A stretch of 64,000 bases of DNA from Opitutaceae bacterium EW11 (GTDB lineage: Bacteria; Verrucomicrobiota; Verrucomicrobiia; Opitutales; Opitutaceae), in contig QAYY01000012.1 in NCBI GenBank assembly GCA_003054665.1, positions 1-64,000 of the forward strand. Direction: 5' to 3'. Each line of letters opens with the position of its first letter. Position 1 is the first letter of the stretch. Under the pieces are notes generated by a model. That model was not told where the DNA came from and made no database searches. It was given only the letters and a program-made list of their open reading frames with translations. Made by a program: the position numbers and the translations under genes. Shown here in pieces: positions 11,986-55,172 of this stretch.

Positions 11986-12009
11986 TCCAAACTCCGCTCC
12001 TGCCCTGCC

Positions 12010-13164: not shown

Positions 13165-13209
13165 ACAACCCTCTCAGCCATCGGTATCGCAGCCGATGGC
13201 CCCTGCGAG

Positions 13210-13238: not shown

Positions 13239-13284
13239 GCATTTGGGCCCCGGAGCGGGTCACGCCGCCGACGCCGGTCCCCGG

Positions 13285-16336: not shown

Positions 16337-16388
16337 GCCCGATGCTGCGGGCAGGCGGGCGAACCCAGCACCCATTTCCGTCCAGCGC

Positions 16389-19211: not shown

Positions 19212-19416
19212 CGCGACGGAGAAGTTGGGAGTTGGTGATTGGAAGCTCGTGTCGCTTCCGTCGTGGAGCCGTGCCGCAGTTTGACGCCGCTCCGAGCGGG
19301 CGCGTGTTGCGCGCACCTGTCCGTCGCGACCATTTCGAATCTCCTGCTCCCGTCGTAGAACTTTCCCGCCGCTCGATTCGAACGGCGGAAAAATCGGTCT
19401 CGTGTCCGCGCAGACG

Positions 19417-40018: not shown

Positions 40019-40214
40019 AATCGGCAACGTAGCATCGCCCCCGTCCCTCAGCTATCGGGAGGCCCACCGCTGGCCAGCTGGGGCGGCTGCGAGGAACCGC
40101 TAACGGATACAGCAGCGTCCCACCACCCCGAATCGACGGGAGCGAACTTCGTCCGATTCAATTTTTCCCTACTCGGCGATTCCGGCGTTGTCGGCGAGGG
40201 CTTCGGCCGCCAGC

Positions 40215-41471: not shown

Positions 41472-41489
41472 CGGCGAAGCTCCGCCCAG

Positions 41490-41521
41490 GGCGGACGGGG
41501 CTGGAGCCCCGCGGGTCCGCC
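41490..41521. repeat. Nested inverted repeat after response regulator
   Basis: GGCGGAC (41490-41496) and GTCCGCC (41515-41521) enclose an inner stem GGGGCT/AGCCCC (41497-41502 and 41505-41510). The nested stems are GC-rich with no T tail, 18 bp past the response-regulator stop. Either a transcript-end structure or an intergenic repeat. Confidence 0.5.
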
Positions 41522-41642
41522 GAGATTCGGTGCATCCCCCCATGCCGCTTTGCGGGAGCGCTTTCGGCACGCGGCAAGGCGGTTCGTGTCGTGACCGCCA
41601 ATCCGGGCGATCCCAGGCCCGGTCGTCCTTGGAGCCGTCGAC

Positions 41643-42698
41643 ATGAAAACCGCGTTTCAGTCCCTCACCGACCGCGTCGTCGTCATCACCGGAGCATCCA
41701 GCGGCATAGGCCGGGCCGCCGCCCGGGCCTTTGCCCAACGCGGCGCGCACGTTGTCCTGGCAGCTCGCCGCGAACGCGCGCTGAGGAAGGTGGCGACCGA
41801 ATGCGAGCAACTCGGCGTGCGCGCCCTGGCGGTGTCGACCGACGTTACCGACGCCGATGCCGTCGCGCGCTTGGCCGAGGCGGCGATGGCCGCGTTCCGG
41901 CGGATCGATGTCTGGATCAACAACGCCGGGGTGGGCCTCTTCGGGCCGTTCGCCGGAGCCGATCTGCGCACGCAGAGGAGGGTCATCGAAACGAATCTTT
42001 TCGGGGCGATGCACGGCGCGGCCGCGGTGCTGCCGATCTTCCTGGAGCGCGAGCAGGGAGTGTTGATCACCAATGTGTCGATCGGCGGCTGGGCCCCGGT
42101 CCCCTTCGCCAGCGCGTACACCGCCAGCAAGTTCGGACTGCGCGGCTTCCTCGCGGGCCTTCGCCAGGAGGTCGCTCACGTGAAGGGCATCCATATCTGC
42201 GGGGTATTCCCCTCCGTCGTCGATACGCCGGGGTACCAACACGCGGCCAACGTCTCCGGAGCTCAACTACGGCCCGCCCGCCCGCTGTACAGCGCCGACG
42301 CCGTGGCGGAAACGTTCGTCGCCCTCGCCTACGAGCCGCGCGACGAGGTCGCCGTCGGCTGGCCGGCCCGGCTCGCCCGAAACGCGTACGCCCTCGCTCC
42401 CGCCACGACCGAGCGCATCGCGGGGCGTTTCTTCCGGACGTACATCAAGAACGCGAGACCGGCGCCCCGTGCGGGAGGCAATCTCTTCCTGCCCGTCTCG
42501 GCCGGAGCCGGCAGCTCCGGAGGCTGGCGGAAAGGCGCGGCCCCGTGGACGTCGGCCTCCGCAGTCTCCTGGGCCCTGCTCGCGATCGGCCTCGGCTTCC
42601 TGGGCGCGGGCGTTTACGCCCAGCGCGTATCCGCAAACCGTCGACACGAACTCGAGCCGCAGCCGCTTCCCGACCCGGCCAGCAGCCCCGCGTATTGA
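41643..42698 (+). CDS. Short-chain dehydrogenase with C-terminal membrane helix
   Basis: A 351-residue SDR. Nucleotide site TGASSGIG, NNAGV, Ser in NVSIGGWAPVP and catalytic Tyr/Lys in SAYTASKFG. Beyond the usual 250 residues there is a linker and a membrane helix near 290-315 (AVSWALLAIGLGFLGAGVYA), then a short polar tail, so the enzyme is probably anchored to the cytoplasmic membrane. The substrate is not given by sequence. Convergent with the regulator gene at 42761. Confidence 0.9.
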   Translation: MKTAFQSLTDRVVVITGASSGIGRAAARAFAQRGAHVVLAARRERALRKVATECEQLGVRALAVSTDVTDADAVARLAEAAMAAFRRIDVWINNAGVGLFGPFAGADLRTQRRVIETNLFGAMHGAAAVLPIFLEREQGVLITNVSIGGWAPVPFASAYTASKFGLRGFLAGLRQEVAHVKGIHICGVFPSVVDTPGYQHAANVSGAQLRPARPLYSADAVAETFVALAYEPRDEVAVGWPARLARNAYALAPATTERIAGRFFRTYIKNARPAPRAGGNLFLPVSAGAGSSGGWRKGAAPWTSASAVSWALLAIGLGFLGAGVYAQRVSANRRHELEPQPLPDPASSPAY

Positions 42699-42760
42699 AC
42701 CCTCGTCCGGGTTCCCGCTGTTCGGCCGGGATCGGCCAAGCGCGTCGCAACTCGGCCGGG

Positions 42761-43879
42761 CTATCGCGACCGGCCGATTCCCGCTTCCGTGGGCACATAT
42801 CCGGGCAGGCTGGTCAGGACACCCTCGGCCGCGAGCTCGGCCAGGTGCTCCTTCAGTTGCTCACCCGACGGGCTGCGCCACCACTGCGCCGGCGCCACGA
42901 GGTCGAAATCGACCGCCTCGGCGGGCACAAAGCCGAGCCCATGCGCCACGGCGAGCGCCTGAGGACCCACCATCACGTCCGCTCTTCCGGCGGCAATGGC
43001 TTGCGCGGCTTCCAGCGCCGACCCGGCGTCGGAGTCGTAGCCGGGGATATCCGCTTCGGCGATACGCGCTCTCGAGAGCTGTTGGTCGAACCAGCGGCGC
43101 GCGGCCGTGCTTCTGTCGCGGTTCGCCAGTTTCCAGGCCCCCGTCCTCAACTCGGCAAGGCCGGTGAAGGGACGGGCCGGATCCCGGCGCACGATCCAAC
43201 CTTGCTCCCACCGGGTGAACCGCACCAGCGCCCAATCCCGCTCGCGATCGCGCAGCCGGACCTCGCGAAGGTTGCCTGAACCGTTGGCGCCGGCGTAGTG
43301 AATCCCCGCCACGTGCACGCGGCCCGCCGACAGGAGATCCAGGGCATGTCCGCTGCCGCAATCCACCCAGTGATACCGGCCGCCTCCCTCCGTCTTGGCG
43401 GACTGCAAGAGCGCCAGCGCCGGATCGCAGCCAGCGAGCAAGAGGTTCGCCGCGACGGTGCCCGCAGGCTTGAGAAAGCGCGCCGCCGAATCCTCCAGGA
43501 GAACGGCGTCCGCCGCCTCAAAGCCCGCGGCCATCGATCTCGGCGTGTCCGCGGCGAACGCAATCCAGCTTTTTCCCACCCGCCCGACGCGCAACCGCGC
43601 TCCGGGACTGAGCGCCGCATCCACCAGCTCCACGTGCGGCGAACGCTCTCGCTCCGCGGCCGCCTCCCCAAACAGGTCCTCCACGGTCGTGCCGAGAAGG
43701 GCGGCCGTGCGCAGCGCGATCAGGACATTCGGCAGCACGCGTCCGGCCTCCATCTGGCTGAGAAACTGACGGCTGACGCCCAGCTCGGCGGCCAGGCCCG
43801 CCTGGGTCTTTCCGCGGGCCTGGCGGATCTGGGCGAGTCTTCGCCCCGGGAGATTTTCTGCTCTTGCCAAATTGGGCAT
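42761..43879 (-). CDS. XRE regulator with PBP-like ligand domain (molybdate-binding type)
   Basis: A 372-residue one-component regulator. The N-terminal XRE HTH (about 10-70) reads RLAQIRQARGKTQAGLAAEL, LGVSRQFLSQMEAGRVLPN. From about residue 80 on there is a periplasmic-binding-protein-like domain in a soluble protein: VAANLLLAGCDPALALLQS, GRVHVAGIHYAGAN, then PGYDSDAGSALEAAQAIAAGRADVMVG. XRE plus PBP-like fusions of this type are known as candidate molybdate/tungstate-responsive regulators (COG1910-like). It is divergent from the TonB receptor operon with a 29-bp palindrome between them. Confidence 0.85.
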   Translation of the reverse strand: MPNLARAENLPGRRLAQIRQARGKTQAGLAAELGVSRQFLSQMEAGRVLPNVLIALRTAALLGTTVEDLFGEAAAERERSPHVELVDAALSPGARLRVGRVGKSWIAFAADTPRSMAAGFEAADAVLLEDSAARFLKPAGTVAANLLLAGCDPALALLQSAKTEGGGRYHWVDCGSGHALDLLSAGRVHVAGIHYAGANGSGNLREVRLRDRERDWALVRFTRWEQGWIVRRDPARPFTGLAELRTGAWKLANRDRSTAARRWFDQQLSRARIAEADIPGYDSDAGSALEAAQAIAAGRADVMVGPQALAVAHGLGFVPAEAVDFDLVAPAQWWRSPSGEQLKEHLAELAAEGVLTSLPGYVPTEAGIGRSR

Positions 43880-43894
43880 GACTTCTGCAGTGCG

Positions 43895-43923
43895 GTATAC
43901 GTTACATCAAATGTCAAGTATAC
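43895..43923. promoter_or_regulatory. 13-bp imperfect palindrome operator in divergent promoter
   Basis: GTATACGTTACAT (43895-43907) and ATGTCAAGTATAC (43911-43923), separated by CAA, are inverse complements at 11 of 13 positions. Both outer halves contain TATAC, which could be a -10 element in each direction (plus strand 43896-43901, minus strand TATACT over 43918-43923). It lies between the XRE regulator start at 43879 and overlaps the ATG of the receptor at 43911. I infer an autoregulatory operator for the XRE regulator. Confidence 0.6.
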
Positions 43924-45965
43924 ACGACATTGCCGCGCCTTTCCCTCGCTCCGCCCAACCTTTTCGCCGGCCTGTCGCCGGGAGAACGATCCTCGTCGCC
44001 GCCGCGCTGAGCGCGGCATGGACGGGCCCGGCTTCGGCGGGAGCGGCGCCCCCGGGGTCCGCACCGTCCACCGACTCCGTCTTCAAGCTGGGCGCCATGA
44101 CCGTGTACGGGGAGCAGCTCTCCCCCGCGGACCTGGTTCCGGTGCAGGCCGACGCCGTGAAGATCGAGCTGCTGGAAAAGCGCACTGCCGCCGAGGCGCT
44201 GGCGACGCTGCCGGGCGTCACCCTCACGCGAGTCGGCGCGCGGAACGAGACCAGCGTTTTTGTCAGGGGCTTCAGCCGGACGCAGACGCCCATCTTCATC
44301 GACGGCGTGCCCGCGTATGTGCCGTACGACGGCTACGTCGACCTCGCGCGCTTCACCACCTACGACCTGGCGACGATCAGCGTCGCGAAGGGCTACAGTT
44401 CGGTGCTGTACGGAGCCAACACCATGGGCGGCGCCATCAACCTGGTCTCCCGCCAGCCCGCGTCCGAATTCGAGGGTCAGGTCGCCGCGGGTCTTTTTTC
44501 CGGCGAGGGCGTCGAGACGAGCCTGAATGTCGGCACAAAGCAGAAACGCTGGTATGCGCAAGGCGGCGCGTCGTATGTCGATCGCGAGACCTTCCCGCTT
44601 TCCGATCATTTTCCGCCGGTGAAGGCCGAGGATGGAGGCGACCGCGAAAACGCGTACTCCACCGATACGAAATATAGCGGGAAGATCGGTTTCACGCCGA
44701 ACGCGACCGACGAGTACGCCCTCGGCTTCGTCCACCAGGAGGGACAGAAGGGCAATCCGCCGTACACCGGCCCGATCGCGAGCATGCTCCGTTACTGGCG
44801 CTGGCCGGAATGGAACAAGCAGACGGTCTATTTCGTTTCCCACACCGAGTTGGACGAGGCCTTCTACATCAAACCGCGGCTGTATTACGATCGATACGAC
44901 AACGCCCTCGATCAGTACTCGGACAAGACCTATTCCACGCTCCTCTCCGGAGCGTCCGGCCCGAGCGCGTATCACGATTATTCCTACGGAGGATCCGTCG
45001 AGTCCGGCCTCCGGCTGCTGCCCGGACACGAGCCGAAGGCGGCCCTGCACTGGAAACTGGATCACCACGACGAGCAGGTGCTGTCGCAGCCGCACTATCT
45101 CTTCGAGGACCGGACCGTATCCGCCGCGCTCGAGGACACCTGGCGCCCGTCCCGGTCGTGGACCGTGCAGGCCGGCCTGGACTACGACCGGCGCGAGACG
45201 CTCCGCGCCGACCAAGTCAACCCGGACAACACTCCCGTCGCCCTGACAACCTTCGACTCCTTCAATCCCGCGATCGCCCTGTTCCGTCTCCTCGGCGACT
45301 CCGGAAGCCTGCGCGCGAGCTTCGCCCGCAAGAGCCGTTTCCCGAACATCAAGGACAGGTACTCCTACCGCTTCAACACGGCCTTCCCCAATGCCGGGCT
45401 GAGGCCGGAGAACGCGCTGCACTACGAGATCGGCTACGACGGGCACCTGACTTCCGCGCTGACGCTGAGCGCGAGCGCCTACCTGAGCCGCATCGGCGAC
45501 GCGATCCAGACGGTGAACAACGTCAACGGGACGACGCGCACGCAGAACCAGAACGTCGGCACGGTGAGAAATCGCGGCATCGACGTCGGAGTGGAGCACA
45601 CCACTTCCTCCTGGCTGCGGCTCGGGGCCAGCTACACGTACCTCGACCAGGAAAACCGAACCAACCCCGCCGCAAAGGTGACCGACACGCCGCGACACAG
45701 CGGAAACGTCTATGCCGACCTGCGCCCGCTCCGCTGGCTCAGCGTCGTCCCCACCTACGAGTTCGCCTCGTGGCGCTACGCCGACACCTCGGGACGAAGG
45801 CTGTCCGGTTTCGCCACCGCCGGCCTCAAGCTCACCGCCCGTCTTCCGCACGGACTCACGCTCAGCGGCGGGGCGGGCAACGTATTCGACAAAAACTACC
45901 AGCTGCAGGACGGCTTCCCGGAGGCCGGCCGCAACTGGTTCGCCAACGTGCGTTACACATTCTAG
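43911..45965 (+). CDS. TonB-dependent outer-membrane receptor
   Basis: A 684-residue outer-membrane transporter. Signal peptide region GRTILVAAALSAAWTGPASA. The plug domain follows: FKLGAMTVYGEQLSPAD, AEALATLPGVTLTRVGARNE, SVFVRGFSRTQTPIFIDGVP and GYSSVLYGANTMGGAINLVS. The barrel ends in NWFANVRYTF, the usual C-terminal aromatic. The only ATG that fits is 43911, inside the operator, so the transcript may be nearly leaderless or the start may be misjudged. First gene of the nine-gene operon; a TonB box is not obvious. Expected cargo is a metal complex or oxyanion. Confidence 0.93.
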   Translation: MSSIHDIAAPFPRSAQPFRRPVAGRTILVAAALSAAWTGPASAGAAPPGSAPSTDSVFKLGAMTVYGEQLSPADLVPVQADAVKIELLEKRTAAEALATLPGVTLTRVGARNETSVFVRGFSRTQTPIFIDGVPAYVPYDGYVDLARFTTYDLATISVAKGYSSVLYGANTMGGAINLVSRQPASEFEGQVAAGLFSGEGVETSLNVGTKQKRWYAQGGASYVDRETFPLSDHFPPVKAEDGGDRENAYSTDTKYSGKIGFTPNATDEYALGFVHQEGQKGNPPYTGPIASMLRYWRWPEWNKQTVYFVSHTELDEAFYIKPRLYYDRYDNALDQYSDKTYSTLLSGASGPSAYHDYSYGGSVESGLRLLPGHEPKAALHWKLDHHDEQVLSQPHYLFEDRTVSAALEDTWRPSRSWTVQAGLDYDRRETLRADQVNPDNTPVALTTFDSFNPAIALFRLLGDSGSLRASFARKSRFPNIKDRYSYRFNTAFPNAGLRPENALHYEIGYDGHLTSALTLSASAYLSRIGDAIQTVNNVNGTTRTQNQNVGTVRNRGIDVGVEHTTSSWLRLGASYTYLDQENRTNPAAKVTDTPRHSGNVYADLRPLRWLSVVPTYEFASWRYADTSGRRLSGFATAGLKLTARLPHGLTLSGGAGNVFDKNYQLQDGFPEAGRNWFANVRYTF

Positions 45966-45967
45966 CC

Positions 45968-46789
45968 ATGCCGCCTCTCGCGCTCGATTCCCCTCCGGTC
46001 CGTCGTCCGGCCCAAGCCGGCTTCTGGACGCTGTACGACCGCCTGGCGCAAGGCGTCTCTTCTCCCGCCCCGGTCCGCGCGTTCGCGGGAGGGCTCCACT
46101 GGTTCTCCGTCGAGGCCGCCGGCTCGCTCGGCCTGGCCATGGCGCCCAAGGAGACCGCGGCGGCGCCGAGCCTGGCCGGCGGCGTAGCCGGCAGGGAACT
46201 ACGGGAAATCTCCGCGCTGGCGAAATCGTGGAACTCCGCCGACGCGGCGCTCGGGGTGGCCGCGCTCAACTCGCACTACAATGCCCCCGACCGCGTGCTC
46301 AGCTGGGCCCGCGCCTCCCATTACGTGCATCTCACCGGGAGCAACGCTTTCGAGACGATGCTGCCGCGGGTGAGCGGCCGCCGTGTCGCCGTGATCGGTC
46401 ATTTTCGCCACCTGGACGAATTTGCCCGGCATTGCGACCTCACGATTCTCGAGCGCCGGCCCCAGCCGGGCGACATGCCGGACCCCGCCTGCGAGGTCGT
46501 TCTGCCGGATGCCGAATTTGTCTTCATCACGGCGACGACGTTGATCAACAAAACCCTGCCGCGTTTGCTCCAGCTTTGTCCGCAGGCCTTCGTCGTTCTG
46601 GTGGGGCCAACCACTCCGCTCGCGCCGGTTTGGTTCGATCTCGGCGTGGACATGGTCGCGGGGCTGTTGATCGACGACGTCCCGGCCGTCCAACAGATCG
46701 TGCAGGAGGGCGGCCAGCATACGTTCTTCGACCGCGGGACCCGCTTCATCCAGATCGAACGCCGCACCGGCCATGCCGCACAGGGTTGA
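45968..46789 (+). CDS. DUF4213/DUF364 putative metal-chelation protein
   Basis: A 273-residue cytosolic protein two bases after the receptor stop. The N-terminal part (about 20-110) fits the DUF4213 enolase-N-like fold; the C-terminal part is the DUF364 Rossmann-like domain (GRRVAVIGHFRHLDEFARH, then FVFITATTLINKTLPRLLQL, VLVGPTTPLAPVWFDLGVD). This family is described as a putative heavy-metal chelation domain; the reaction is unknown. Its last 17 bases overlap the permease gene. A conserved partner of class III metal transporters, it probably handles the metal in the cytosol. Confidence 0.85.
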   Translation: MPPLALDSPPVRRPAQAGFWTLYDRLAQGVSSPAPVRAFAGGLHWFSVEAAGSLGLAMAPKETAAAPSLAGGVAGRELREISALAKSWNSADAALGVAALNSHYNAPDRVLSWARASHYVHLTGSNAFETMLPRVSGRRVAVIGHFRHLDEFARHCDLTILERRPQPGDMPDPACEVVLPDAEFVFITATTLINKTLPRLLQLCPQAFVVLVGPTTPLAPVWFDLGVDMVAGLLIDDVPAVQQIVQEGGQHTFFDRGTRFIQIERRTGHAAQG

Positions 46790-47807
46790 ACCGTCGAAGG
46801 GCGGCCTTCTCTCCGCGCAGACCGCCCTGCTCGCAATCGCGGTGGCGGCAAGCGTGTGCCTCTCGCTGCGCATCGGCGCTCATCCTCTTTCGTGGGCGGA
46901 CCTCGGCCAGCTCTGGTTCCCGGTCGGTTCCGCGACAGTGGATCGAAGCACGGTCGCCACCCTGGTGTACCAGATCCGATTGCCCCGCATCGTCGCCGCG
47001 CTCTCCATCGGGGCCGGGCTTTCCGTGGCGGGAGCCTCGTACCAGGGGCTGTTCCGCAATTCGCTCGTCTCGCCCGACATCCTCGGCGCCTCGTCCGGCG
47101 CGGCGTTCGGCGCGGCCCTCGGCATCATGCTTTCGCTGGGCATCGCCGCCGTCCAGGGCCTTGCCTTCGCCAGCGGCCTGAGCGCCGTTCTGTTGACGTA
47201 TCTGCTGAGCCGCTCGGTCGGAGGCGGCACGTTCACCCTGAGGCTCGTGCTGACCGGGATGGTCGTGGGCAGCCTGGCCATGGCCGGCGTGGCGGTGATA
47301 AAAACACTCGCCGATCCGTACTCGAAACTGCCGATGATCACCTACTGGCTGCTCGGCAGCCTGTCCGCGATCACGGCCGCGGACGTGAAGGTGCTGCTGC
47401 CGCCGCTGCTCGCCGGAATGGCCGTGTTGATGGCCCTGCGCTGGCCGCTCAACGCGATGGCTCTCGGCGAGGAGGAGGCGCGCGCGCTCGGTGTCGCCAC
47501 GACTCGAATACGCCTGCTGACGCTGCTCTCCGCCACCCTCGTCACCTCCGTCTCCGTGGCGATCGGCGGAGTGATCGGATGGGTCGGATTGATGGTGCCG
47601 CACCTGGTGCGTTTCTGGATCGGACCCAATCACCGCGACGTCCTGCCGAGGTCGTTCCTGCTCGGAGCCCTTTTTCTCCTCTGGGCGGACAACCTGGCCC
47701 GATGCCTGTTCGCGGGCGAACTGCCGATCGGCGCGGTCACCTGCGCCTGCGGCATTCCCGTCTTTCTCCTCCTGCTCCGGCGGGCCTCCGGGAGCTGGTC
47801 CGAATGA
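46773..47807 (+). CDS. FecCD/BtuC-type ABC permease
   Basis: Inner-membrane permease of the siderophore/cobalamin/molybdate class III type, 344 residues with about nine to ten membrane helices. Family marks: RLPRIVAALSIGAGLSVAGA, QGLFRNSLVSPDILGASSGA, GVATTRIRLLTLLSATLVTS and IGWVGLMVPHLVRFWIGPNHR, ending with PIGAVTCACGIPVFLLLLRR. Its ATG is inside the DUF364 gene. A homodimer is expected with the ATPase encoded next. Confidence 0.95.
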   Translation: MPHRVEPSKGGLLSAQTALLAIAVAASVCLSLRIGAHPLSWADLGQLWFPVGSATVDRSTVATLVYQIRLPRIVAALSIGAGLSVAGASYQGLFRNSLVSPDILGASSGAAFGAALGIMLSLGIAAVQGLAFASGLSAVLLTYLLSRSVGGGTFTLRLVLTGMVVGSLAMAGVAVIKTLADPYSKLPMITYWLLGSLSAITAADVKVLLPPLLAGMAVLMALRWPLNAMALGEEEARALGVATTRIRLLTLLSATLVTSVSVAIGGVIGWVGLMVPHLVRFWIGPNHRDVLPRSFLLGALFLLWADNLARCLFAGELPIGAVTCACGIPVFLLLLRRASGSWSE

Positions 47808-47811
47808 ATCG

Positions 47812-48594
47812 ATGACGCTGACGCTCCACCGCCTCTCCTGTGGGTACTCCCGCACGCCCGTCCTCCGGGACGTCTCGTTCTCCGTCGGTGCCGGCGAGTT
47901 CGTCTGCCTGCTCGGACCCAACGGCTCCGGGAAAACGGCGCTGCTCAAGACACTCGTCGGGATTCTCGAGCCGCTCGACGGCCGCATCCAGGTCGGGGGA
48001 AAAGACTGGGCCGCGTGGTCCGCCCGGGAACGCGCCGCGCAAATCGCCTACGTGCCCCAGGCCCATGCGCCGCTCTTCGCCTTTCGCGTGCTCGACGTCG
48101 TGGCGATGGGGCGGACTGCCCGGTGGCCGCTTTGGTCCGGACCGACCGAGAGCGACTGGAAGGCAGCCCGGGGCGCGCTGGACTTGGTGGAGATGCAGGA
48201 CTTCGCCGAACGGCGCTACACCGAACTCAGCGGCGGGGAGCGTCAGATGATTCTTCTCGCGCGCGCCCTGGCCCAGGAGGCGCGTTTCCTCGTGCTCGAC
48301 GAGCCGGTTTCCAGCCTCGATTTCGGCAACCAGGTCCGTGTGCTGCAGACGCTGCGCCGACTGGTGAGCGACGGTTTCGGCGTGATCATGGCGACCCACC
48401 ATCCCGAACACGCCCTGCGCTGCGCCAACCGGGTGGCGGTGGTGGGGAACGGCCGGCTTTCGCCCGCCGCCCATCCCGAGGAGGTGCTCACCCCGGAGGT
48501 CCTGGAAGCCATTTACCAAGTGCCTTTCCTCGTGACCCAGCTCACCGGCCGGGACGGCCGGCCCTTTTCGTTATGCACTCCCCACCTCAGTTGA
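47812..48594 (+). CDS. ABC transporter ATPase (FecE/BtuD type)
   Basis: A 260-residue ATPase partner of the permease. Walker A GPNGSGKTALLK, Q-loop YVPQAHAPLFAFRVLDVV, signature LSGGERQM, Walker B FLVLDEPVSSLDFG, switch His in THHPEHAL. It begins four bases after the permease stop; the binding-protein gene starts 22 bases before its end. Confidence 0.95.
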   Translation: MTLTLHRLSCGYSRTPVLRDVSFSVGAGEFVCLLGPNGSGKTALLKTLVGILEPLDGRIQVGGKDWAAWSARERAAQIAYVPQAHAPLFAFRVLDVVAMGRTARWPLWSGPTESDWKAARGALDLVEMQDFAERRYTELSGGERQMILLARALAQEARFLVLDEPVSSLDFGNQVRVLQTLRRLVSDGFGVIMATHHPEHALRCANRVAVVGNGRLSPAAHPEEVLTPEVLEAIYQVPFLVTQLTGRDGRPFSLCTPHLS

Positions 48595-49763
48595 CCCCGG
48601 CGACGTCCGCTCCGCCGCGCCCGGACGTTTCCCTGCGCGAGTCGATCCGACCAGCGCCCCCGGCCGTTGGATTCGGCGCCCGGTATCGGCTGCGCCCGCC
48701 GCTCCTCCTCGCGGCGGGCTGTCTGGCCGCGACGATCGCGTCCGCGGAGCCAGCCGCAGTCTCGATCGTCGACGGGGTCGGCCGCACCCTCCGCGTGCCG
48801 GCCAGCATCGAACGCGTGTACGCGACGAGCCCCGTCGGGGCGGTGATGCTCTATACTCTCTCGCCGCAGAAGATGGTCGGCTGGAACTACAAGCTGGGCC
48901 AGGCGGAGCGCCATTTCATCCTCCCGGCGGCGCGCGAGCTGCCTGCGCTCGGCGGCTGGTTCGGCGAGAGCGCGATGGGAAATCGCGAGTCGATCCTGGT
49001 TGCGCGTCCGGACGTGATCCTCTCCGTCGGCCAACACGACCGCACGGCGATCGAGTTCGCCGAACGGCTTCAAGGGCAGATCGGCATTCCCGTGTTTGTG
49101 GCGAGCGGCGGACTGTCCGATACCGCCGCCACCTACGAACTCGTCGGAAAACTGCTCGGCGTGCCGGAGCGCGCAGCCGCGCTCGCCGATTACGCCCGGC
49201 GCACCCTCTCGCAGGCAAGGGCCGCCGCCGAAGCGATACCCCGGCGCGAACAGGTCCGAGTCTATTACGCCGAAGGAATGCGCGGACTCCAGACGGACAC
49301 TCGGGGATCCTGGCACACGGAGCTGCTCGATCTGCTCGGCGTGGAGAACGTCGCCGACGTCCCAACCACGAGCGGTTTCGGCCGCGTATCCGTTTCGCTC
49401 GACCAAGTCATCGCCTGGAAACCCGACGTCGTGCTGGCCTGCCCGGAAAAGCTTAACGCGAACGGCTCCTGGATGCCCGAATGGCTCCAGGATCCGGCTT
49501 GGCGGGAGGTGCCCGGGGTGGCGCGGGGGCGCGTGTACCTGATCCCCGGCGCGCCGTTCAACTGGTTCGATCGGCCGCCCTCACCCGCCAGGCTGCTCGG
49601 GCTGAAATGGCTGCTCTGGGTCCTGTATCCCGAACGCGCCGATTTCGACATGGTCGCCGAAACGCGCGAGTTCTACCGGCTTTTCTACGGGTACGACCTC
49701 GGCGAAGCCGAGGCGCGCAGCATCCTGGAGGCGTCGCAGCCGAAGTTTGTCGCAAAACCATGA
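48573..49763 (+). CDS. Class III (BtuF/FhuD/MolA-like) periplasmic binding protein
   Basis: A 396-residue exported binding protein for the transporter. A long N-terminal stretch leads to the hydrophobic segment PPLLLAAGCLAATIASA, which also contains a lipobox-like LAAGC, so the protein may be lipid-anchored. The mature part has the class III pattern: ASIERVYATSPVGAVMLYTL, ILVARPDVILSVGQHDRT, GRVSVSLDQVIAWKPDVVLA and a C-terminal DPAWREVPGVARGRVYLIP. In this group are vitamin B12, siderophore and molybdate binders; sequence alone does not pick the ligand. Confidence 0.9.
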   Translation: MHSPPQLTPATSAPPRPDVSLRESIRPAPPAVGFGARYRLRPPLLLAAGCLAATIASAEPAAVSIVDGVGRTLRVPASIERVYATSPVGAVMLYTLSPQKMVGWNYKLGQAERHFILPAARELPALGGWFGESAMGNRESILVARPDVILSVGQHDRTAIEFAERLQGQIGIPVFVASGGLSDTAATYELVGKLLGVPERAAALADYARRTLSQARAAAEAIPRREQVRVYYAEGMRGLQTDTRGSWHTELLDLLGVENVADVPTTSGFGRVSVSLDQVIAWKPDVVLACPEKLNANGSWMPEWLQDPAWREVPGVARGRVYLIPGAPFNWFDRPPSPARLLGLKWLLWVLYPERADFDMVAETREFYRLFYGYDLGEAEARSILEASQPKFVAKP

Positions 49764-50671
49764 ATACCACCGTGCCCGTCTCCCCGCGCCCCGTTTCGAT
49801 CACCCCGATCGGAATCGTCGCCGCGCCGTTCTCATCGGTGGAGGGCGGCTGCGACTATGTCAGCGAGTCGCGTATCCTGCTGCGGCCGGAACTCGCGCCG
49901 GGCCTCGTCGGCATCGAATATTTCTCGCATCTGTGGGTCATCTATCACCAGCACCGCTCCGCCGAGTGGCTTCGCGCTCGCGGCTGGGAGCCGGCGTCCG
50001 CGATGATCCTGCCGCCCGACGACGACCGAGCCGGCCTGGGGGTCTTCAGTTCTCGCGCGCCCTGCCGTCCGGCCCAGCTCGGCTCCAGCATCGTGGGCCT
50101 GACGCGTCGCGAAAAAAACGTGCTCTGGGTGCGCGGGCTCGACGCCCTCGACGGAACGCCCGTCCTCGACGTCAAACCCTACGTGCCCCAGTTCGACGCC
50201 TTTCCCGAGGCGATCGTGCCGCAGCACTGGGCCAAGGTCATGGACCGGCCGGGAGACGCAGCCCGCCTCTCCCGCGAACTTCACTGGGACACGAGCAATT
50301 CCGACTGCGCGCTCGGCCTCCGCAGCGGAGTGGCGATCCTGCAGAGACTCGGCCTGGCTCGCGGCGCACCGCTTTCGGCCGAGCTCTCTGGCTCCCCGTT
50401 TTTCGCGCACGGATTCGAGATGGCGACCGGCTGCAGCCCGCTGCGCGGGACGCTGGCGGTGACGCCCCGCACCGCCGGGGAAAGACCGTGGAGGCTCCGC
50501 GTCTTTCACCGCGGTGAGGCGACGGTCGTCGATCTGAAAAGAATCGCGTGGCCCGATGCGGCCAGCGTCCTCACTGCGTCGGAGAACGAGCTGTTCGAAA
50601 CGCCCCGCAACGACGCTGCGGCATCGGAGACTCCCGGACCGGCCAAGGCGCCGGCCCCCTGCCCGTCATGA
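49760..50671 (+). CDS. TrmO-like/FmdE-like fusion protein
   Basis: A 303-residue fusion of two families. Residues about 10-150 are TrmO/TsaA-like: ITPIGIVAAPFSS, LVGIEYFSHLWVIYHQHR, GLGVFSSRAPCRPAQLGSSI and LDALDGTPVLDVKPYVPQFD. TrmO methylates t6A37 in tRNA with SAM. Residues about 165-270 resemble FmdE: SNSDCALGLRSGVAILQRLG and MATGCSPLRGTL, with the two conserved Cys positions, then FHRGEATVVDLKR. FmdE is a metal-binding family named from Mo/W formylmethanofuran dehydrogenase. ATGA overlaps on both sides mean tight coupling to the transporter genes, so the TrmO part may here have a metal-related rather than tRNA role. Confidence 0.75.
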   Translation: MNTTVPVSPRPVSITPIGIVAAPFSSVEGGCDYVSESRILLRPELAPGLVGIEYFSHLWVIYHQHRSAEWLRARGWEPASAMILPPDDDRAGLGVFSSRAPCRPAQLGSSIVGLTRREKNVLWVRGLDALDGTPVLDVKPYVPQFDAFPEAIVPQHWAKVMDRPGDAARLSRELHWDTSNSDCALGLRSGVAILQRLGLARGAPLSAELSGSPFFAHGFEMATGCSPLRGTLAVTPRTAGERPWRLRVFHRGEATVVDLKRIAWPDAASVLTASENELFETPRNDAAASETPGPAKAPAPCPS

Positions 50672-51750
50672 CCGGACGGAACTCCGCACCGCAAGAGCCA
50701 CGAAAACCCATCCCTCTCCAAATTGTGAATACCACCCGCTCCACGGACGCGCTGGACGAAGAGCCTGTCTTTCCCGAGATCGAAAACGGCCGGCGACGCC
50801 GGCTCGATTTTCTCGGCTACGCCCCCTGCCCGGTCCGAAACGAATTGCGCCAGCGCCTGCATCGCCGCTTCCTCGCCCTGGCGGCCGCGAACGGCGCCCC
50901 ACCCGTTTGGTTCATGCCGGCGGGATGCCACGAACCCAATCCCTACGACGAATTGTGGCGCACGGAGGACGCCGCCGAGCTGCCCGCCTTGATCGCCGAA
51001 ACGGGCTTCGGAGGCTTCAACCAGCCCTCCTTCGTCCGGCGCTGGCTCGACTCGGAAACGTTCGCGGCCGTTCCGGACGACGCCGTCCGCCCCGAATTCG
51101 CCGATGCGGGTCTGCTGGATTCGCGCCGTCAGCATCGGGTGATCGCCGCGAACGTCGAAATCGTCCTCGCCGACCTCAATCGGCTGGGGGCCAGACCGCT
51201 GCCGCGCACGTGGGCCGACATCCTGCATGCCCGCTTCCAGGGGGACATCATCGTGAGCGGCGGGCCGGGGAACATCCACGAGTCGATTCTCTTCAGCCTC
51301 TACCGCGACCATGGCGAGGACGGCCTTTCCGCTCTGGGCGCCAATGTGCGCGAATTCATGCACCCGGCGGAGATGGCGAAGACGGCGGGTTCCGCCAGTC
51401 CCCGGGGCGCCGCGCTTTACGTCCTGCCGTGGTTTTTCGCCCGGGCCGCCCCGCACCGCCCGGCCACCCGCGTCGTCTGGCCGGAGGAGGGCGCGTATCT
51501 GACGCCGCAATACCTGCTGCAGCGGGGAGGCGAGAATCGAGGCGCCGCTCTCGCCGCCGAGTACCTTTGCGGCTCCGAGTGGGCCGAGCATCTCGCACGC
51601 ATCGGCTTCGCGCCTGCGCGTGCCGGCTCCCCCGCGCTTCCCGGCCGTCTCCGCTGGGTGGGCTGGGATTTCGTTCGCACGCAGGATCTCGACGCTCTGC
51701 GCGGCCGGCTCAACGCCGCGTTCGCGCGCGGCCACCGCCCCGGACAATGA
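50668..51750 (+). CDS. Binding-protein-like protein lacking signal peptide
   Basis: A 360-residue protein resembling bacterial ABC substrate-binding proteins of the AfuA/PotD kind (LDFLGYAPCPVRNELRQR, DIIVSGGPGNIHESILFSLY, GAALYVLPWFFARAAPHRP, ATRVVWPEEGAYLTPQYLL). Notably the N-terminus (MTGRNSAPQEPRKPIPLQIV) has no signal peptide or lipobox, so it probably stays in the cytosol. It is translationally coupled at both ends by ATGA overlaps, between the FmdE-like fusion and the GTPase-like gene. I infer a cytosolic carrier or scaffold for the imported ligand. Confidence 0.7.
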   Translation: MTGRNSAPQEPRKPIPLQIVNTTRSTDALDEEPVFPEIENGRRRRLDFLGYAPCPVRNELRQRLHRRFLALAAANGAPPVWFMPAGCHEPNPYDELWRTEDAAELPALIAETGFGGFNQPSFVRRWLDSETFAAVPDDAVRPEFADAGLLDSRRQHRVIAANVEIVLADLNRLGARPLPRTWADILHARFQGDIIVSGGPGNIHESILFSLYRDHGEDGLSALGANVREFMHPAEMAKTAGSASPRGAALYVLPWFFARAAPHRPATRVVWPEEGAYLTPQYLLQRGGENRGAALAAEYLCGSEWAEHLARIGFAPARAGSPALPGRLRWVGWDFVRTQDLDALRGRLNAAFARGHRPGQ

Positions 51751-52448
51751 AACTCGTCACCGTCGCCGGGCCGCCTTCCTCGGGCAAGACGGCCATCATC
51801 GTCAAGGCGCTCGGCCACCTGCAGCGTGAGGGGCGGCGCGTGGGCGTGGTCAAATTCGACTGCCTCGCCAGCCACGATGCCGAGTTATTCCGCGCCGCCG
51901 GCATCCCCGCGCTCGTCGGACTCTCGGGCAATTTCTGCCCGGATCACTATTTCACCACCAACATCGAGGATTGTTTCGCCTGGGGAAGGCGGCAGGACCT
52001 CGCCCTGCTCGTGAGCGAAAGCGCCGGCCTCTGCAATCGCTGCGCCCCGCATATCCGGGGCCATCTCGCGGTATGCGTGCTCGATCAGCTGGCGGGGGTG
52101 CACACGCCGCTAAAGGTCGGGCCCATGCTCAAGACCGCCGACCTGGTGCTGGTCACGAAGGGCGACATCGTGAGCCAGGCCGAACGGGAAGTATTCGCGT
52201 TCCGGGTACGCCAGGTCAACGCCCGGGCCCGGCTGCTGTTCGTCAACGGCATCACCGGCCAGGGTTCCTGGGAGGTGAGCCGCCTGTGGGACGAGGCGCC
52301 GGAAGACACGCCGCTCACGGGCGGGCGGCTGAGATTTCCGGTGCCGTCGGCGGTCTGCTCCTACTGCCTGGGCGAAACCGCCATCGGCGCCGAACATCAG
52401 CACGGCACGGTCCGCAAGATCCAGATACCGGAAGCCGAGTCGCACTGA
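51747..52448 (+). CDS. HypB/CobW-like P-loop NTPase rich in Cys
   Basis: A 233-residue G3E-type NTPase. P-loop VAGPPSSGKTAIIVK, then a switch region with FDCLASHDAE, and VTKGDIVSQAE where the family has its guanine-specificity motif. Cysteines are concentrated in metal-binding-like pairs: GNFCPDHYF, LCNRCAPHIRG and near the end VCSYCLGE, followed by EHQHG. HypB and CobW relatives insert nickel, cobalt or zinc into enzymes using nucleotide hydrolysis. The gene overlaps its upstream neighbour by ATGA, and the next gene starts two bases after its stop. Confidence 0.8.
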   Translation: MKLVTVAGPPSSGKTAIIVKALGHLQREGRRVGVVKFDCLASHDAELFRAAGIPALVGLSGNFCPDHYFTTNIEDCFAWGRRQDLALLVSESAGLCNRCAPHIRGHLAVCVLDQLAGVHTPLKVGPMLKTADLVLVTKGDIVSQAEREVFAFRVRQVNARARLLFVNGITGQGSWEVSRLWDEAPEDTPLTGGRLRFPVPSAVCSYCLGETAIGAEHQHGTVRKIQIPEAESH

Positions 52449-52449
52449 C

Positions 52450-53454
52450 ATGAACTCCCACGAACCCGCCCTAGACGTCGAGTTGGACGAAGCGCGCAGC
52501 GCGCATTTCTTTCGGATGAACCATCTCCCATCCCGCGGGGCCCATCGTTCCTTGCGCGCCTGGTGGGAGGCCCAGCCCTGGGAGTATCGCACCGACGGCG
52601 GTTGGGACTACGAGCGCCTGCGCGACGGGCTCCTGTCGTTTCTGGCGGCGACGAAGGGTTCGGCCGATCGGGCCCCGTTGCGCATGCTCGAGATTCGCCG
52701 GGGGCGCGACAAGAGCGGTCAACCGGAGAAGTTCGACCTGGTGCTTCGGCCCGGAGAGGTCGTTTGCCTCGTGGGGCCGACCGGAGCCGGGAAGAGCCGC
52801 TTGCTCGCCGACATCGAATGTCTCGCGCAAGGCGACACCCCGACCGGGCGCGTCGTGCTGATCGACGGGGAGCGGCCCCAGCCGGAGACGCGTTTCACCG
52901 GTGATGGGCAGATCGTCGCCCAGATCACGCAGAACATGAATTTCGTGATGGATCTCACAGTCGCTGAGTTCCTGAAGCTGCACGCGGAAAGCCGCGCCAT
53001 CGCCTCCCCGGACAGCGCGGTGCGGAGCGTACTCGAAGCGGCGGTGAGCATGGCGGGAGAACCTTTCGGACCGTCGACGCCGTTGACGCAGCTGAGCGGC
53101 GGGCAGTCGCGGGCGTTGATGATCGCTGACGCGGCGTTTCTGAGTCCGAAGCCGGTGATCCTCATCGATGAGATCGAGAACGCCGGCGTCGATCGCACGC
53201 GGGCGCTGGAATTCTTCGTCGATCAGGGAAAGATCGTCCTGCTCTCCACTCACGATCCTCTGCTGGCGCTGTCCGGAGTGCGTCGCCTGGTCATCCGGCA
53301 CGGGGCCGTGCAAGAGGTGATCGAACCGTCCGCGACCGAGAAGGCGCTCCGGCAACGCCTCGCTGGCATCGATCGCCAACTTTCCGCACTTCGCGAACGA
53401 CTCCGCAGCGGCGAGCGCTTGGATTCCGATCCGGCGACAACGCCTGCGCTCTGA
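52450..53454 (+). CDS. Stand-alone ABC-type ATPase
   Basis: A 334-residue ABC ATPase. Walker A VGPTGAGKSRLLADIE, signature LSGGQSRALMIADAAFL, Walker B VILIDEIENAGVDRTRA with Glu, switch His in LSTHDPLLALS. The N-terminal 80 residues and the C-terminal 40 are extra. It has no permease gene beside it, and the N-terminus has no membrane helix. Soluble ABC ATPases are known as helpers in metal-cofactor maturation (for example the AtwA component in MCR activation), which fits its place after the HypB-like gene. Last gene of the operon, convergent with a kinase. Confidence 0.85.
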   Translation: MNSHEPALDVELDEARSAHFFRMNHLPSRGAHRSLRAWWEAQPWEYRTDGGWDYERLRDGLLSFLAATKGSADRAPLRMLEIRRGRDKSGQPEKFDLVLRPGEVVCLVGPTGAGKSRLLADIECLAQGDTPTGRVVLIDGERPQPETRFTGDGQIVAQITQNMNFVMDLTVAEFLKLHAESRAIASPDSAVRSVLEAAVSMAGEPFGPSTPLTQLSGGQSRALMIADAAFLSPKPVILIDEIENAGVDRTRALEFFVDQGKIVLLSTHDPLLALSGVRRLVIRHGAVQEVIEPSATEKALRQRLAGIDRQLSALRERLRSGERLDSDPATTPAL

Positions 53455-53476
53455 CTGCGTCTTGCCTGGCCTGCCT

Positions 53477-53492
53477 GCGGGCGTTCGCCCGC
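53477..53492. terminator. Hairpin between convergent genes
   Basis: GCGGGCG (53477-53483), TT, CGCCCGC (53486-53492) make a perfect 7-bp stem in the 44-bp gap between the ABC ATPase and the kinase. No U-rich tail on either strand, so a bidirectional transcript end is only possible. Confidence 0.35.
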
Positions 53493-53498
53493 GCGAGG

Positions 53499-55172
53499 TC
53501 AGCCGGCTGCGGCGGGCGTTTCGGCGCTTTCGAGGGTGCCGAGCGTGAAGAAGAAAGTCGCACCCTCGTTCACCTTGCCCTCGGCCCAGATCTCGCCTCC
53601 GTGGCGGCGGATGATCTTGTGCACCAGCGCGAGGCCGATGCCCGTGCCCTCGAAGCCCTCGTCCTTGTGCAGGCTCTGGAACACCCCGAAGAGCTTGTCG
53701 TAATACCGCATGTTGAAGCCGACGCCGTTGTCCCGGACGTAGTAGATCGGCCGGCCTTCGCGGTTCTGGGTGCCGATCTCGATCAGCGCGTTTTTCACCG
53801 GAGCGGTGAACTTCACCGCGTTCGACAGCAGGTTCACGAACACCTGGCGCAACATGGCGCGATCGCCGAAGGCCGCGGGCAGGCTGCCGATGCGGAACTC
53901 GATGATGCGGTTCGAACTGACCGGTTTCACGACGTCGATCGCCGCCTGGGCCAGCACTTTCATGTCGAAATGGATCGCGTTCACATGCGCCCTCCCAAAA
54001 CGGAAAAACGCCAGAAAATCGTCGATCAGCTTCGTCAGGTGCAGACTGTTGCGGCTCACCGCCTCGACCATCTGGCGCCCCTCCGAGTCCAGCCGCTTCA
54101 GGTGCTCCGTGAGGAGGATCTCCGAATAGCCGGTGATCGCCCGGAGCGGGCCGCGCAGGTCGTGGGAAATTGAATACGAAAATTCCTCCAGCTCGCGGTT
54201 GGCCGCCTGCAGTTCCGACGAATGCCGTTCGAGCGCCTGGTTGAGGCTTCGCACCTCCGCCTCGCGCTCGATGCGCTCGGTGATGTCGCGGGCGAACACG
54301 TAGAGCAGCTCCTCCGCGGCAAACGGCGCCATCGTCCACCCGAACCAGCGATAGCCTCCGTCCTTGGCGCGGACGCGGTTCTCGAAATACGCCGGCCGGT
54401 CTCCGGTCAGGATCTTGATCATCGCCTCCACCGTGGCGGGGCGGTCGTCGGCGTGCACCAGGTCCACCAGCGGCTGCGATTTCAACTCCTCCTCGGAGAA
54501 CCCGAGCGTGGCTTCCCAGGTGGGATTCACCTGGGTCAATTCCCAGCGGTAGTTGGCGATGCCGAGCAGCTCGATCGAGAGGTTGAAGAAACGATTCCTC
54601 CGTGTCTCCCATTCGATGCGTTCGTTCGCCTGGACGAGCTGACGTTGGTGCCGCTCCTCCTGCATCAGGCGCAGCTGCTCCGCCTGGCGCTGGATCTCGC
54701 ACCGCTGCCGGTGGAGGTCGAGGAAGACGGAGACCTTGGAGCGCAACACCTCCGGCACGACGGGCGTGAAGATGTAGTCGACGGCTCCCAGCGAATAGCC
54801 GCGGAAGACGTCGGTGTCCGCGGTGCTGAACGAGGTCACGAAGATGATCGGCACGTGCGCGGTCGCCTTGCGCTGGCGGATGAGCTGGGCCGCCTCGAAG
54901 CCGTCCATCCCGGGCATGTTCACGTCGAGCAGGATGACCGCGAACTCTTCGCGAAGGAGGTGGCGAAGCGCCTCGGTCCCCGATCCAGCCTTGACGACGT
55001 TCTGGCCGAGGTCGCCGAGGACCGTCTCCAATGCGAGCAATTTGTCCGGCGCGTCGTCGACCACCAGGATGTTGATCGCGTCGGACCTGGGGGCGCGCGT
55101 CTCGGAAGCGTCCGGTTCTGCAGCGGGAAGCGGCGGGGCCGAAAACGAAGTGCTGTTCGGCTGGGCAATCAT
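53499..55172 (-). CDS. REC-PAS histidine kinase
   Basis: A 557-residue cytosolic kinase starting at 55172 (GTG at 55184 is an alternative). Receiver at about 30-150 with phospho-Asp in VILLDVNMPGMDGFEA, but DYIFTPVVPEVLRSKV replaces the usual Lys-Pro with Thr-Pro. A coiled coil follows (RQAEQLRLMQEERHQRQLVQ), one PAS region (about 200-320), HisKA with ELEEFSYSISHDLRGPLRAI and HATPase_c with NLLSNAVKFT, VRDNGVGFNM and GTGIGLALVH. HisKA type is that of the phytochrome-like kinases. It is upstream of nothing on its strand but lies 121 bp from the giant kinase gene, in the same direction. Confidence 0.93.
   Translation of the reverse strand: MIAQPNSTSFSAPPLPAAEPDASETRAPRSDAINILVVDDAPDKLLALETVLGDLGQNVVKAGSGTEALRHLLREEFAVILLDVNMPGMDGFEAAQLIRQRKATAHVPIIFVTSFSTADTDVFRGYSLGAVDYIFTPVVPEVLRSKVSVFLDLHRQRCEIQRQAEQLRLMQEERHQRQLVQANERIEWETRRNRFFNLSIELLGIANYRWELTQVNPTWEATLGFSEEELKSQPLVDLVHADDRPATVEAMIKILTGDRPAYFENRVRAKDGGYRWFGWTMAPFAAEELLYVFARDITERIEREAEVRSLNQALERHSSELQAANRELEEFSYSISHDLRGPLRAITGYSEILLTEHLKRLDSEGRQMVEAVSRNSLHLTKLIDDFLAFFRFGRAHVNAIHFDMKVLAQAAIDVVKPVSSNRIIEFRIGSLPAAFGDRAMLRQVFVNLLSNAVKFTAPVKNALIEIGTQNREGRPIYYVRDNGVGFNMRYYDKLFGVFQSLHKDEGFEGTGIGLALVHKIIRRHGGEIWAEGKVNEGATFFFTLGTLESAETPAAAG

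What the first reader, a model, noticed from the sequence alone, without database searches (positions are those of the whole stretch)
43895..53454. Nine-gene TonB-linked metal uptake and delivery operon with unusual cytosolic parts
One tight operon joins a TonB receptor, DUF364 chelation-type protein, class III ABC importer, TrmO-FmdE-like fusion, a signal-less binding-protein-like protein, a Cys-rich HypB/CobW-like NTPase and an orphan ABC ATPase, controlled by a divergent XRE regulator with a PBP-like ligand domain. Seen: gene order, overlaps, motifs. Known: class III importers include the Haemophilus MolABC molybdate system, COG1910-like regulators are predicted to sense Mo/W oxyanions, FmdE is tied to Mo/W enzymes. 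Inferred: the operon imports an oxyanion or metal and hands it through a cytosolic relay. I know of no description of this whole set.
Basis: partly seen in the sequence, partly recalled or inferred. Interest (0 to 1): 0.85.

Follow-up and report, generated by a model that had tools for sequence, protein, structure and literature searches.

The report
Nitrogenase-linked metal scavenging and delivery operon
This is a real nine-gene operon that joins an outer-membrane metal importer to a three-protein cytosolic unit found mostly in nitrogen-fixing bacteria, so it probably supplies molybdenum (or a similar metal) to nitrogenase; the metal itself is not yet proven.

Summary
The operon is real: nine same-strand genes (43911-53454), a divergent XRE regulator with a PF12727 domain, and between them a 29-bp palindrome found once in the 6.4 Mb genome. 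A cytosolic trio (signal-less FbpA-fold protein, UreG/HypB-like NTPase with six invariant cysteines, soluble ABC ATPase) is a module of its own; the importer half (TonB, DUF364, FecCD, ATPase, binding protein, TrmO-like) joins it fully in three other loci. New: the client. In the window's order 6 of 7 NTPase-bearing genomes carry nifH (24 of 372 overall); in Pseudomonadaceae 7 of 7 do (22 of 238). In Azotobacter-like genomes the trio lies near vnfDGK and matches a published VnfA1-regulated operon of unknown biochemistry. In the nearest full relative the operon runs into mop-modABC, but that genome shows only nitrogenase-like genes. Best reading: heterometal (most likely Mo) acquisition and delivery for nitrogenase; metal and handover steps are inferred. 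Iron is the main rival. Four deep-branching carriers lack nifH. The FmdE claim failed a profile test.

The parts
42761..43879 (-). XRE-type regulator with PBP-like (PF12727/COG1910-type) ligand domain
   Evidence: HTH_31/HTH_3 plus PF12727 5.1e-38; PRK14498 (molybdopterin biosynthesis protein) partial match 7.1e-29, below its cut-off
43895..43923 (.). 29-bp imperfect palindrome, candidate operator of the regulator
   Evidence: only match at up to 3 mismatches in the 6.4 Mb genome
43911..45965 (+). TonB-dependent outer-membrane receptor
   Evidence: PF00593 5e-31 and Plug 2.9e-20
45968..46789 (+). DUF4213-DUF364 protein, putative heavy-metal chelation family
   Evidence: PF04016 9.6e-40, PF13938 5.2e-13
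46773..47807 (+). FecCD-type ABC permease
   Evidence: PF01032 2.7e-80
47812..48594 (+). ABC ATPase of the importer
   Evidence: PF00005 1.1e-30; best NCBIfam matches corrinoid, F420-0, heme and FecE ATPases, each below its cut-off
48573..49763 (+). periplasmic binding protein (Peripla_BP_2) with hydrophobic N-terminus
   Evidence: PF01497; profile matches PDB 4pag 7.2e-68 and H. influenzae HI_1472 (3psa) 1.3e-18; hydropathy
49760..50671 (+). TrmO_N-domain protein with an extra C-terminal domain of unknown type
   Evidence: PF01980 1.8e-28; TIGR00104 90.6 bits, cut-off 93.25; C-terminus without Pfam match
50668..51750 (+). signal-less solute-binding-protein fold (trio member 1)
   Evidence: PF13343 3.1e-46; AF2 model pLDDT 87.5, ferric-binding-protein fold, best Z 20.4
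51747..52448 (+). UreG/HypB-like G3E NTPase with CPDH, CNRC and CSYC motifs (trio member 2)
   Evidence: PF02492 2.3e-10; UreG/HypB in the PDB; invariant Cys 39, 64, 96, 99, 204, 207 in 12 sequences
52450..53454 (+). soluble ABC ATPase with N-terminal extension (trio member 3)
   Evidence: PF00005 1.5e-14; LSGGQSR signature invariant in 12 sequences

Best explanation
A high-affinity heterometal supply operon for nitrogenase, most likely for molybdenum in this organism. Shown: gene content, operon structure, a divergent regulator with a single palindrome, conservation of the trio, its co-occurrence with nifH in one order and one family of two phyla, its location near vnfDGK in Azotobacter-like genomes, and the run-on into mop-modABC in the nearest full relative. 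Inferred: when Mo is scarce the XRE-PBP regulator, which senses the oxyanion, lets the operon be expressed. The TonB receptor brings a chelated metal (or metallophore complex) into the periplasm. The 48573-49763 protein and the FecCD/ATPase pair carry it into the cytosol. DUF364 and the TrmO-like protein help to release or modify the chelate. The FbpA-fold protein holds the freed metal, and the G3E NTPase and soluble ABC ATPase pass it on by nucleotide hydrolysis, as UreG/HypB do for nickel, to nitrogenase cofactor assembly. The genome shows no NifQ, the known Mo donor.
For: nifH over cut-off in 12 of 18 NTPase-bearing genomes or records. Order of the window: NTPase 7 of 372 (the paralogue G321 set aside), nifH 24 of 372, both 6, Fisher 2.6e-7. 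Pseudomonadaceae: NTPase 7 of 238, trio seen in all 7, nifH 22 of 238, both 7, Fisher 2.2e-8; the 7 have 2 or 3 nifH hits, the other 15 have one each. vnfK ends about 5 kb from the trio in L105, with vnfD, vnfG and vnfK over their cut-offs; vnfD, over cut-off, lies 16-19 kb from the NTPase in three more genomes. NifQ absent in 35 of 36 genomes searched, G000 included. L025: TOBE/mop, modA over cut-off, modB, modC directly downstream. DUF364 in 3 of 372 genomes, all with the NTPase. PMC9542535: trio operon Avin_02430-02410 is VnfA1- and sigma54-dependent (section 7). PMC2954201: DUF364 contexts include Mo, W, V and Fe (passages).
Against: No ligand or phenotype was tested. The FbpA-like fold and an feoB gene (over cut-off) beside the trio in L030 also fit iron. 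G000 already has modABC beside nifHD. 18 nifH-bearing genomes of the order have no trio (one of them, G321, has the paralogue). G617, the genome of L025, shows only nitrogenase-like genes below the nif cut-offs, so the modABC run-on and a proven nitrogenase are not in the same genome there. The four deep-branching carriers (Fusobacterium, a spirochaete, G285, G129) lack nifH over cut-off, and three of them also lack MoaC; in the phylum sample 2 of 4 close NTPase carriers are of this kind. Counts are not corrected for shared ancestry.
Confidence: 0.5

Rival explanations
1. Iron supply for nitrogenase: the operon imports a ferric siderophore and the trio handles iron in the cytosol, needed in bulk for nitrogenase clusters.
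For: FbpA/FutA ferric-binding fold of 50668-51750; TonB receptor nearest to siderophore and B12 receptor models, below their cut-offs; feoB divergent to the trio in L030; [quoted passage not shown]
Against: PF12727 regulator and mop-modABC run-on in L025; in Azotobacter the trio operon is under VnfA1, which acts when Mo is absent; HypB/UreG-type NTPases are not known for iron (recalled).
Confidence: 0.24
2. Vanadium or tungsten rather than Mo: a general oxyanion or metallophore scavenger whose product serves whichever nitrogenase or other enzyme is present.
For: Trio near vnfDGK in Azotobacter-like genomes; DUF364 contexts with V and W (PMC2954201).
Against: No AnfG/VnfG in G000; 2 of 36 searched genomes have it; NifD of G000 is over the Mo-type equivalog cut-off.
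Confidence: 0.1
3. Nickel or cobalt handling by a UreG/HypB-like system, unrelated to nitrogenase.
For: NTPase nearest to UreG/HypB; a LarC-like gene near the trio in L033/L034 (by eye); annotation 'nickel binding GTPase' for Avin_02420 (PMC9542535).
Against: nifH association in two phyla and VnfA1 control.
Confidence: 0.07
4. Two unrelated units side by side: a metal importer and a separate nitrogenase accessory trio.
For: Trio (or NTPase plus ABC ATPase) without the importer half in L027, L032, L033, L034, L035, L037, L038, L039 and L047; L035, L038 and L039 are contigs under 10 kb, so the rest may lie elsewhere.
Against: The whole set recurs in L025, L028 and L031, in changed order in the last two; TonB+DUF364 are kept on another contig in G553; importer genes adjoin the trio in L029 and L036 and lie 7 kb from it in Azomonas; start/stop overlaps of 4 bases.
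Confidence: 0.07

Closest known systems
Azotobacter vinelandii Avin_02430-02420-02410(-02400-02390), VnfA1-dependent operon (PMC9542535)
   Same: Same three protein kinds in the same order: binding protein, G3E GTPase, ABC ATPase; my type-2 loci also carry the nitroreductase and glutamate-cysteine-ligase genes. Linked to nitrogenase.
   Different: Here no nitroreductase or ligase, no VnfA/sigma54 strings upstream, no V-nitrogenase delta subunit; joined instead to a TonB/FecCD importer, DUF364, a TrmO-like gene and an XRE-PBP regulator. NTPase is 58-61% identical to type 2 and 69% to type 1.
Avin_00450 'putative iron ABC transporter operon', class B VnfA1 target (PMC9542535)
   Same: Type-1 trio of G679, preceded by a Peripla_BP_2 gene, a VnfA motif and a -24/-12 string; its position fits Avin_00450 by interpolation of recalled locus-tag numbers.
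   Different: The identity of G679 and of this operon with Avin_00450 is inferred; tblastn found no TonB, DUF364 or FecCD homologue in the fetched 20 kb (L098).
Haemophilus MolBCA (HI_1470-1472; name recalled) class III molybdate importer
   Same: FecCD-type permease, ATPase, Peripla_BP_2 protein; the profile of 48573-49763 matches HI_1472 structures 3psa/3psh at 1.3e-18.
   Different: Nearer to 4pag (7.2e-68), whose ligand I did not learn; HI_1472 ranks fifth. TonB, DUF364 and the trio were not compared with Haemophilus.
UreG/HypB G3E metallochaperones
   Same: P-loop, ExxG (ESAG) motif, Cys/His motifs (family description from passages of PMC9164220).
   Different: Six invariant cysteines and fixed partners (FbpA-fold protein and ABC ATPase); below the HypB and UreG equivalog cut-offs.

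Membership tests
Azotobacter trio operon (Avin_02430-02410 type) | SBP_bac_6 protein, G3E NTPase and ABC ATPase genes adjacent in that order | tested here: met
Azotobacter trio operon (Avin_02430-02410 type) | VnfA motif and sigma54 promoter upstream | tested here: not met
   one VnfA string in window 40001-54000, at 44398 inside the TonB gene; no -24/-12 string
Azotobacter trio operon (Avin_02430-02410 type) | V nitrogenase in the genome | tested here: not met
   no AnfG/VnfG in G000
G3E P-loop metallochaperone (UreG/HypB/CobW) | cobW/HypB/UreG domain, Walker A, ExxG motif | tested here: met
G3E P-loop metallochaperone (UreG/HypB/CobW) | metal binding and delivery to a client enzyme | not testable with these tools
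   only conserved Cys/His positions are seen
Class III (FecCD) ABC importer | FecCD permease, cognate ATPase, Peripla_BP_2 protein with export signal | tested here: met
   signal judged by hydropathy only
MolABC molybdate importer | molybdate as the substrate | not testable with these tools
   homology to HI_1472 1.3e-18 does not fix the substrate
COG1910/PF12727 Mo/W-responsive regulator | PF12727 domain next to a DNA-binding domain | tested here: met
COG1910/PF12727 Mo/W-responsive regulator | binds molybdate or tungstate | not testable with these tools
   context only: L074 regulator near nifH and modAB-like genes
FmdE | match to an FmdE profile | tested here: not met
   no Pfam family up to E = 10 for the C-terminal domain in window or L025; the fold model is too weak to decide (pLDDT 57.1)
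NifQ (Mo donor) | PF04891 | tested here: not met
   absent from G000; 1 of 36 genomes has it (G624)
TrmO | TrmO_N domain and TIGR00104 over cut-off | tested here: inconclusive
   PF01980 met, TIGR00104 90.6 of 93.25 bits

The most novel reading that the evidence does not exclude
The trio is a NifQ-independent, nucleotide-driven heterometal donor for nitrogenase cofactor assembly: it hands V to the V system in Azotobacter and Mo to the Mo system in NifQ-less Verrucomicrobiota. Here it is hard-wired to its own outer-membrane metallophore importer and Mo sensor, so one operon runs from outer membrane to cofactor.
Probability: 0.23. Interest if true: 0.88.

Novelty: new variant of a known kind. 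Interest (0 to 1): 0.66.

Why it matters
[quoted passage not shown] The biochemistry of the VnfA1-regulated SBP-GTPase-ABC operon of Azotobacter was not given in the parts of PMC9542535 that I read. This window ties that orphan trio to a complete uptake path and a dedicated regulator in another phylum, in a genome with a Mo-type nitrogenase and no AnfG/VnfG. That makes a concrete, testable candidate for heterometal delivery, of use also to those who move nitrogenase into new hosts.

Tried and rejected
FmdE fusion: rejected on profiles; the AF2 model of 49760-50668 is weak and its 10 PDB matches with E up to 0.001 are all TrmO-family structures.

Alternative nitrogenase as the general client: AnfG/VnfG in 2 of 36 genomes, G620 and G624. 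Moco enzymes as the general client: MoaC in 8 of 18 NTPase-bearing genomes. NifQ replacement as a strict rule: all 18 trio-less nifH genomes of the order also lack NifQ, so the trio is not the universal substitute.

G617 as a nitrogen fixer: at first I counted its split nifH hits; on checking, its NifH-like, NifB-like and NifD/E-like genes stay below the nif cut-offs, CfbC scoring almost as well as NifH on the fragment, so I now call them nitrogenase-like only (I lowered the best explanation from 0.55 to 0.50 and the novel case from 0.25 to 0.23 for this).

A genome-wide regulon of the XRE protein: the palindrome has one site; the upstream stretches tested in L025, L028, L031, L074 and L086 show no such palindrome. 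Promoter and terminator scans were uninformative. A plasmid search with the Fusobacterium ABC ATPase listed, in the 30 of 1044 records shown, only itself and distant ABC proteins. PDB search of the regulator's ligand part found nothing. I first took the genes beside the trio in L105 for anf; NCBIfam shows vnf.

In print: I found no paper on this operon in searches (listings only, apart from the papers cited); subscription papers are mostly not held. Addo and Dos Santos 2020 was seen only as a citation.
Full report
What is there. The window is contig C4:1-64000 of a 6,396,474-base genome; the named loci nearest to it are Opitutia-type Verrucomicrobiota. Nine genes run on the + strand from about 43911 to 53454, with gaps between -22 and +4 bases. 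In order: TonB receptor, DUF4213-DUF364, FecCD permease, ATPase, Peripla_BP_2 protein, TrmO_N protein, SBP_bac_6 protein, cobW/HypB/UreG NTPase and ABC ATPase. The divergent gene 42761-43879 is an XRE regulator with PF12727. Between them lies a 29-bp palindrome, 43895-43923, the only match at up to three mismatches in the genome.

Anatomy of the second half. The 50668-51750 protein has no hydrophobic N-terminus, unlike the 48573-49763 protein. Its model (pLDDT 87.5) has the ferric-binding-protein fold: best Z 20.4, rmsd 3.3, 279 residues (VmFbpA). A shared fold does not fix the ligand. Homologues in Fusobacterium and a spirochaete carry an extra DUF1858 domain. The NTPase has 6 invariant cysteines, the motifs CPDH, CNRC and CSYC, and an ESAG (ExxG) motif in all 12 aligned sequences. 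Its nearest solved relatives are UreG and HypB, apart from P-loop-only matches to RecA. The ABC ATPase has conserved runs QNMNF and LSGGQSR.

The trio is a module. In the 12 named loci found with the NTPase, the ABC ATPase is present in 12 of 12 and the SBP_bac_6 gene in 11 of 12 (not recognised in L030). In L027, L032, L033, L034, L035, L037, L038, L039 and L047 it stands without the importer half (SBP_bac_6 not recognised in L039; L035, L038 and L039 are contigs under 10 kb). In L025, L028 and L031 the full set recurs, with changed gene order in L028 and L031. In L029 the trio is followed by TonB, binding-protein, FecCD and ATPase genes, and in L036 it is preceded by TonB and binding-protein genes. 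Azomonas (G624) also has a second trio about 7 kb from a TonB-PBP-FecCD-ATPase set. In G553, TonB and DUF364 homologues lie on another contig. DUF364 occurs in 3 of 372 genomes of the order (G000, G379, G553), all three NTPase-bearing; Fisher 4.1e-6. In a phylum sample the NTPase search gave 22 of 288 genomes at E 1e-10, of which 4 are 56% identical or more (G000, G128, G285, G129).

The client. nifH (TIGR01287) is over its cut-off in 12 of 18 NTPase-bearing genomes or records. The six others: G617, with NifH-, NifB- and NifD/E-like genes below the nif cut-offs, so nitrogenase-like only; G553, 84% complete, with a gene whose best match is NifN (260 bits, cut-off 326.8) about 8 kb from the trio; and the four deep-branching carriers G285, G129, G623 and the Fusobacterium record. 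In the order, the NTPase is in 7 of 372 genomes (8 hits, G321 set aside as a paralogue) and nifH in 24 of 372; 6 genomes have both, Fisher 2.6e-7. A second, unrelated family gave the same: in Pseudomonadaceae the NTPase is in 7 of 238, with the full trio in all 7, and nifH is in 22 of 238, all 7 carriers among them, Fisher 2.2e-8. These 7 have two or three nifH hits each; the other 15 have one each. Neither test is corrected for ancestry. In a tree of 18 NTPases a 13-row clade has 100/99 support: 11 of its rows come from genomes with nifH over cut-off, the other two are G617 and G553. The Pseudomonadaceae type-2 copies were not in that tree, and its root is for drawing only.

Where it sits in Azotobacter-like genomes. 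Two kinds of trio occur: type 1 (G624, G679; 69% identical to the window in the NTPase) and type 2 (58-61%), most copies of the latter followed by nitroreductase and glutamate-cysteine-ligase genes. In L105 vnfK ends about 5 kb before the type-2 trio, and vnfD, vnfG and vnfK are each over their NCBIfam cut-offs. In G679, G657 and G641 a vnfD over cut-off lies 16-19 kb from the NTPase. This fits the operon that PMC9542535 (section 7 read) describes as Avin_02430, 02420 ('nickel binding GTPase'), 02410, 02400 and 02390: VnfA1-dependent and, apart from the last gene, conserved in Proteobacteria with V nitrogenase. The type-1 trio of G679 has a Peripla_BP_2 gene in front, with a VnfA motif starting 192 bases and a -24/-12 string starting 53 bases upstream of it; I did not work out how often such strings occur by chance. 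It may be the Avin_00450 operon, a target strongly activated only without Mo and V (section 8); I infer this from position and recalled tag numbers, and that G679 is A. vinelandii from its size (5,366,370 bases).

Which metal. For Mo: L025 continues past the ABC ATPase into TOBE/mop, modA (192 bits, cut-off 62.5), modB and modC (modB and modC by eye and by homology of the ATPase). The XRE-PBP ligand domain is PF12727 (COG1910-type, recalled equivalence), and a COG1910 gene is among the mod genes raised under N2 fixation in Paenibacillus (PMC4774088, passages). A homologue lies in L074 together with nifH and modAB-like genes. G000 has a Mo-type nifD (669 bits, cut-off 653.55) and no AnfG/VnfG. 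G128, G379 and G397 have nifH but no MoaC match, which suggests, on this one gene, that Mo there is not used for Moco. DUF364 is linked in print to Mo, W, V and Fe transport genes (PMC2954201, passages). Against Mo, or for iron: the ferric-binding fold, feoB beside the trio in L030 (over cut-off), receptor models of siderophore type, and modABC already present beside nifH in G000. Against a nitrogenase role for all members: the deep-branching carriers without nifH, three of which also lack MoaC, and G617.

Most likely mechanism, with steps marked. Regulation by a Mo-sensing XRE protein at the palindrome: inferred from family and position. Uptake through TonB receptor, binding protein and FecCD importer: inferred from families. 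Release or chemical handling of the chelate by DUF364 and the TrmO-like protein: speculative. Metal hold by the FbpA-fold protein and NTP-driven handover by the G3E NTPase and ABC ATPase to nitrogenase assembly: inferred from families, genome association and VnfA1 control in Azotobacter. NifQ is absent from 35 of 36 genomes searched, G000 included, but the 18 trio-less diazotrophs of the order lack it too, so the trio cannot be the sole substitute.

Verdict. The FmdE claim fails. The finding that matters is the tie to nitrogenase, which places an unexplained, VnfA1-regulated trio of Azotobacter in a complete uptake operon of another phylum. I rate it a new variant of a known kind.

Noticed in passing
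L052 (G321:C209) 6128-8533: A paralogous set: ABC ATPase (39%), NTPase (37%, CPDH and CLRC kept) and an Fe-S cluster protein (PF04060) in place of the SBP_bac_6 gene, also in a nifH-bearing genome.
   Followed up: partly
L078 and L079 (G617): Nitrogenase-like gene set (NifH-, NifB- and NifD/E-like, all below nif cut-offs) near transporter genes that look like sulfonate uptake (by eye); perhaps a methylthio-alkane reductase or NFL type enzyme, seen only as names in a paper listing.
   Followed up: partly
L024 (NZ_CP084075.1, Fusobacterium vincentii) 10823-20674: Deep-branching trio beside ZnuABC-like metal transporter genes (by eye) and DUF6162; the record lacks nifH over cut-off and MoaC. The 2.1 Mb record is listed as a plasmid.
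   Followed up: partly
L026 (LUYR01000581.1): Labelled a Rhodospirillales MAG, but its NTPase is 87% identical to the window's and groups with an Opitutia sequence; binning contamination or recent transfer are possible.
   Followed up: no
L033/L034, about 11.7-14.0 kb: An SPFH-like and a LarC-like gene follow the trio in two Verrucomicrobia genomes (by eye).
   Followed up: no
G000:C4:77349-86442 (outside the window): MoaC and a MoaA-like gene (L083 13349-14512, by eye) lie 24-33 kb downstream of the operon.
   Followed up: no
L099, L102, L105, near the type-2 trio: Small genes with a start near MK(S/T)(R/K)GI(V/D)NATRRL, and a Nif11-like leader peptide gene near the trio in L105, both unexplained (by eye).
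   Followed up: no
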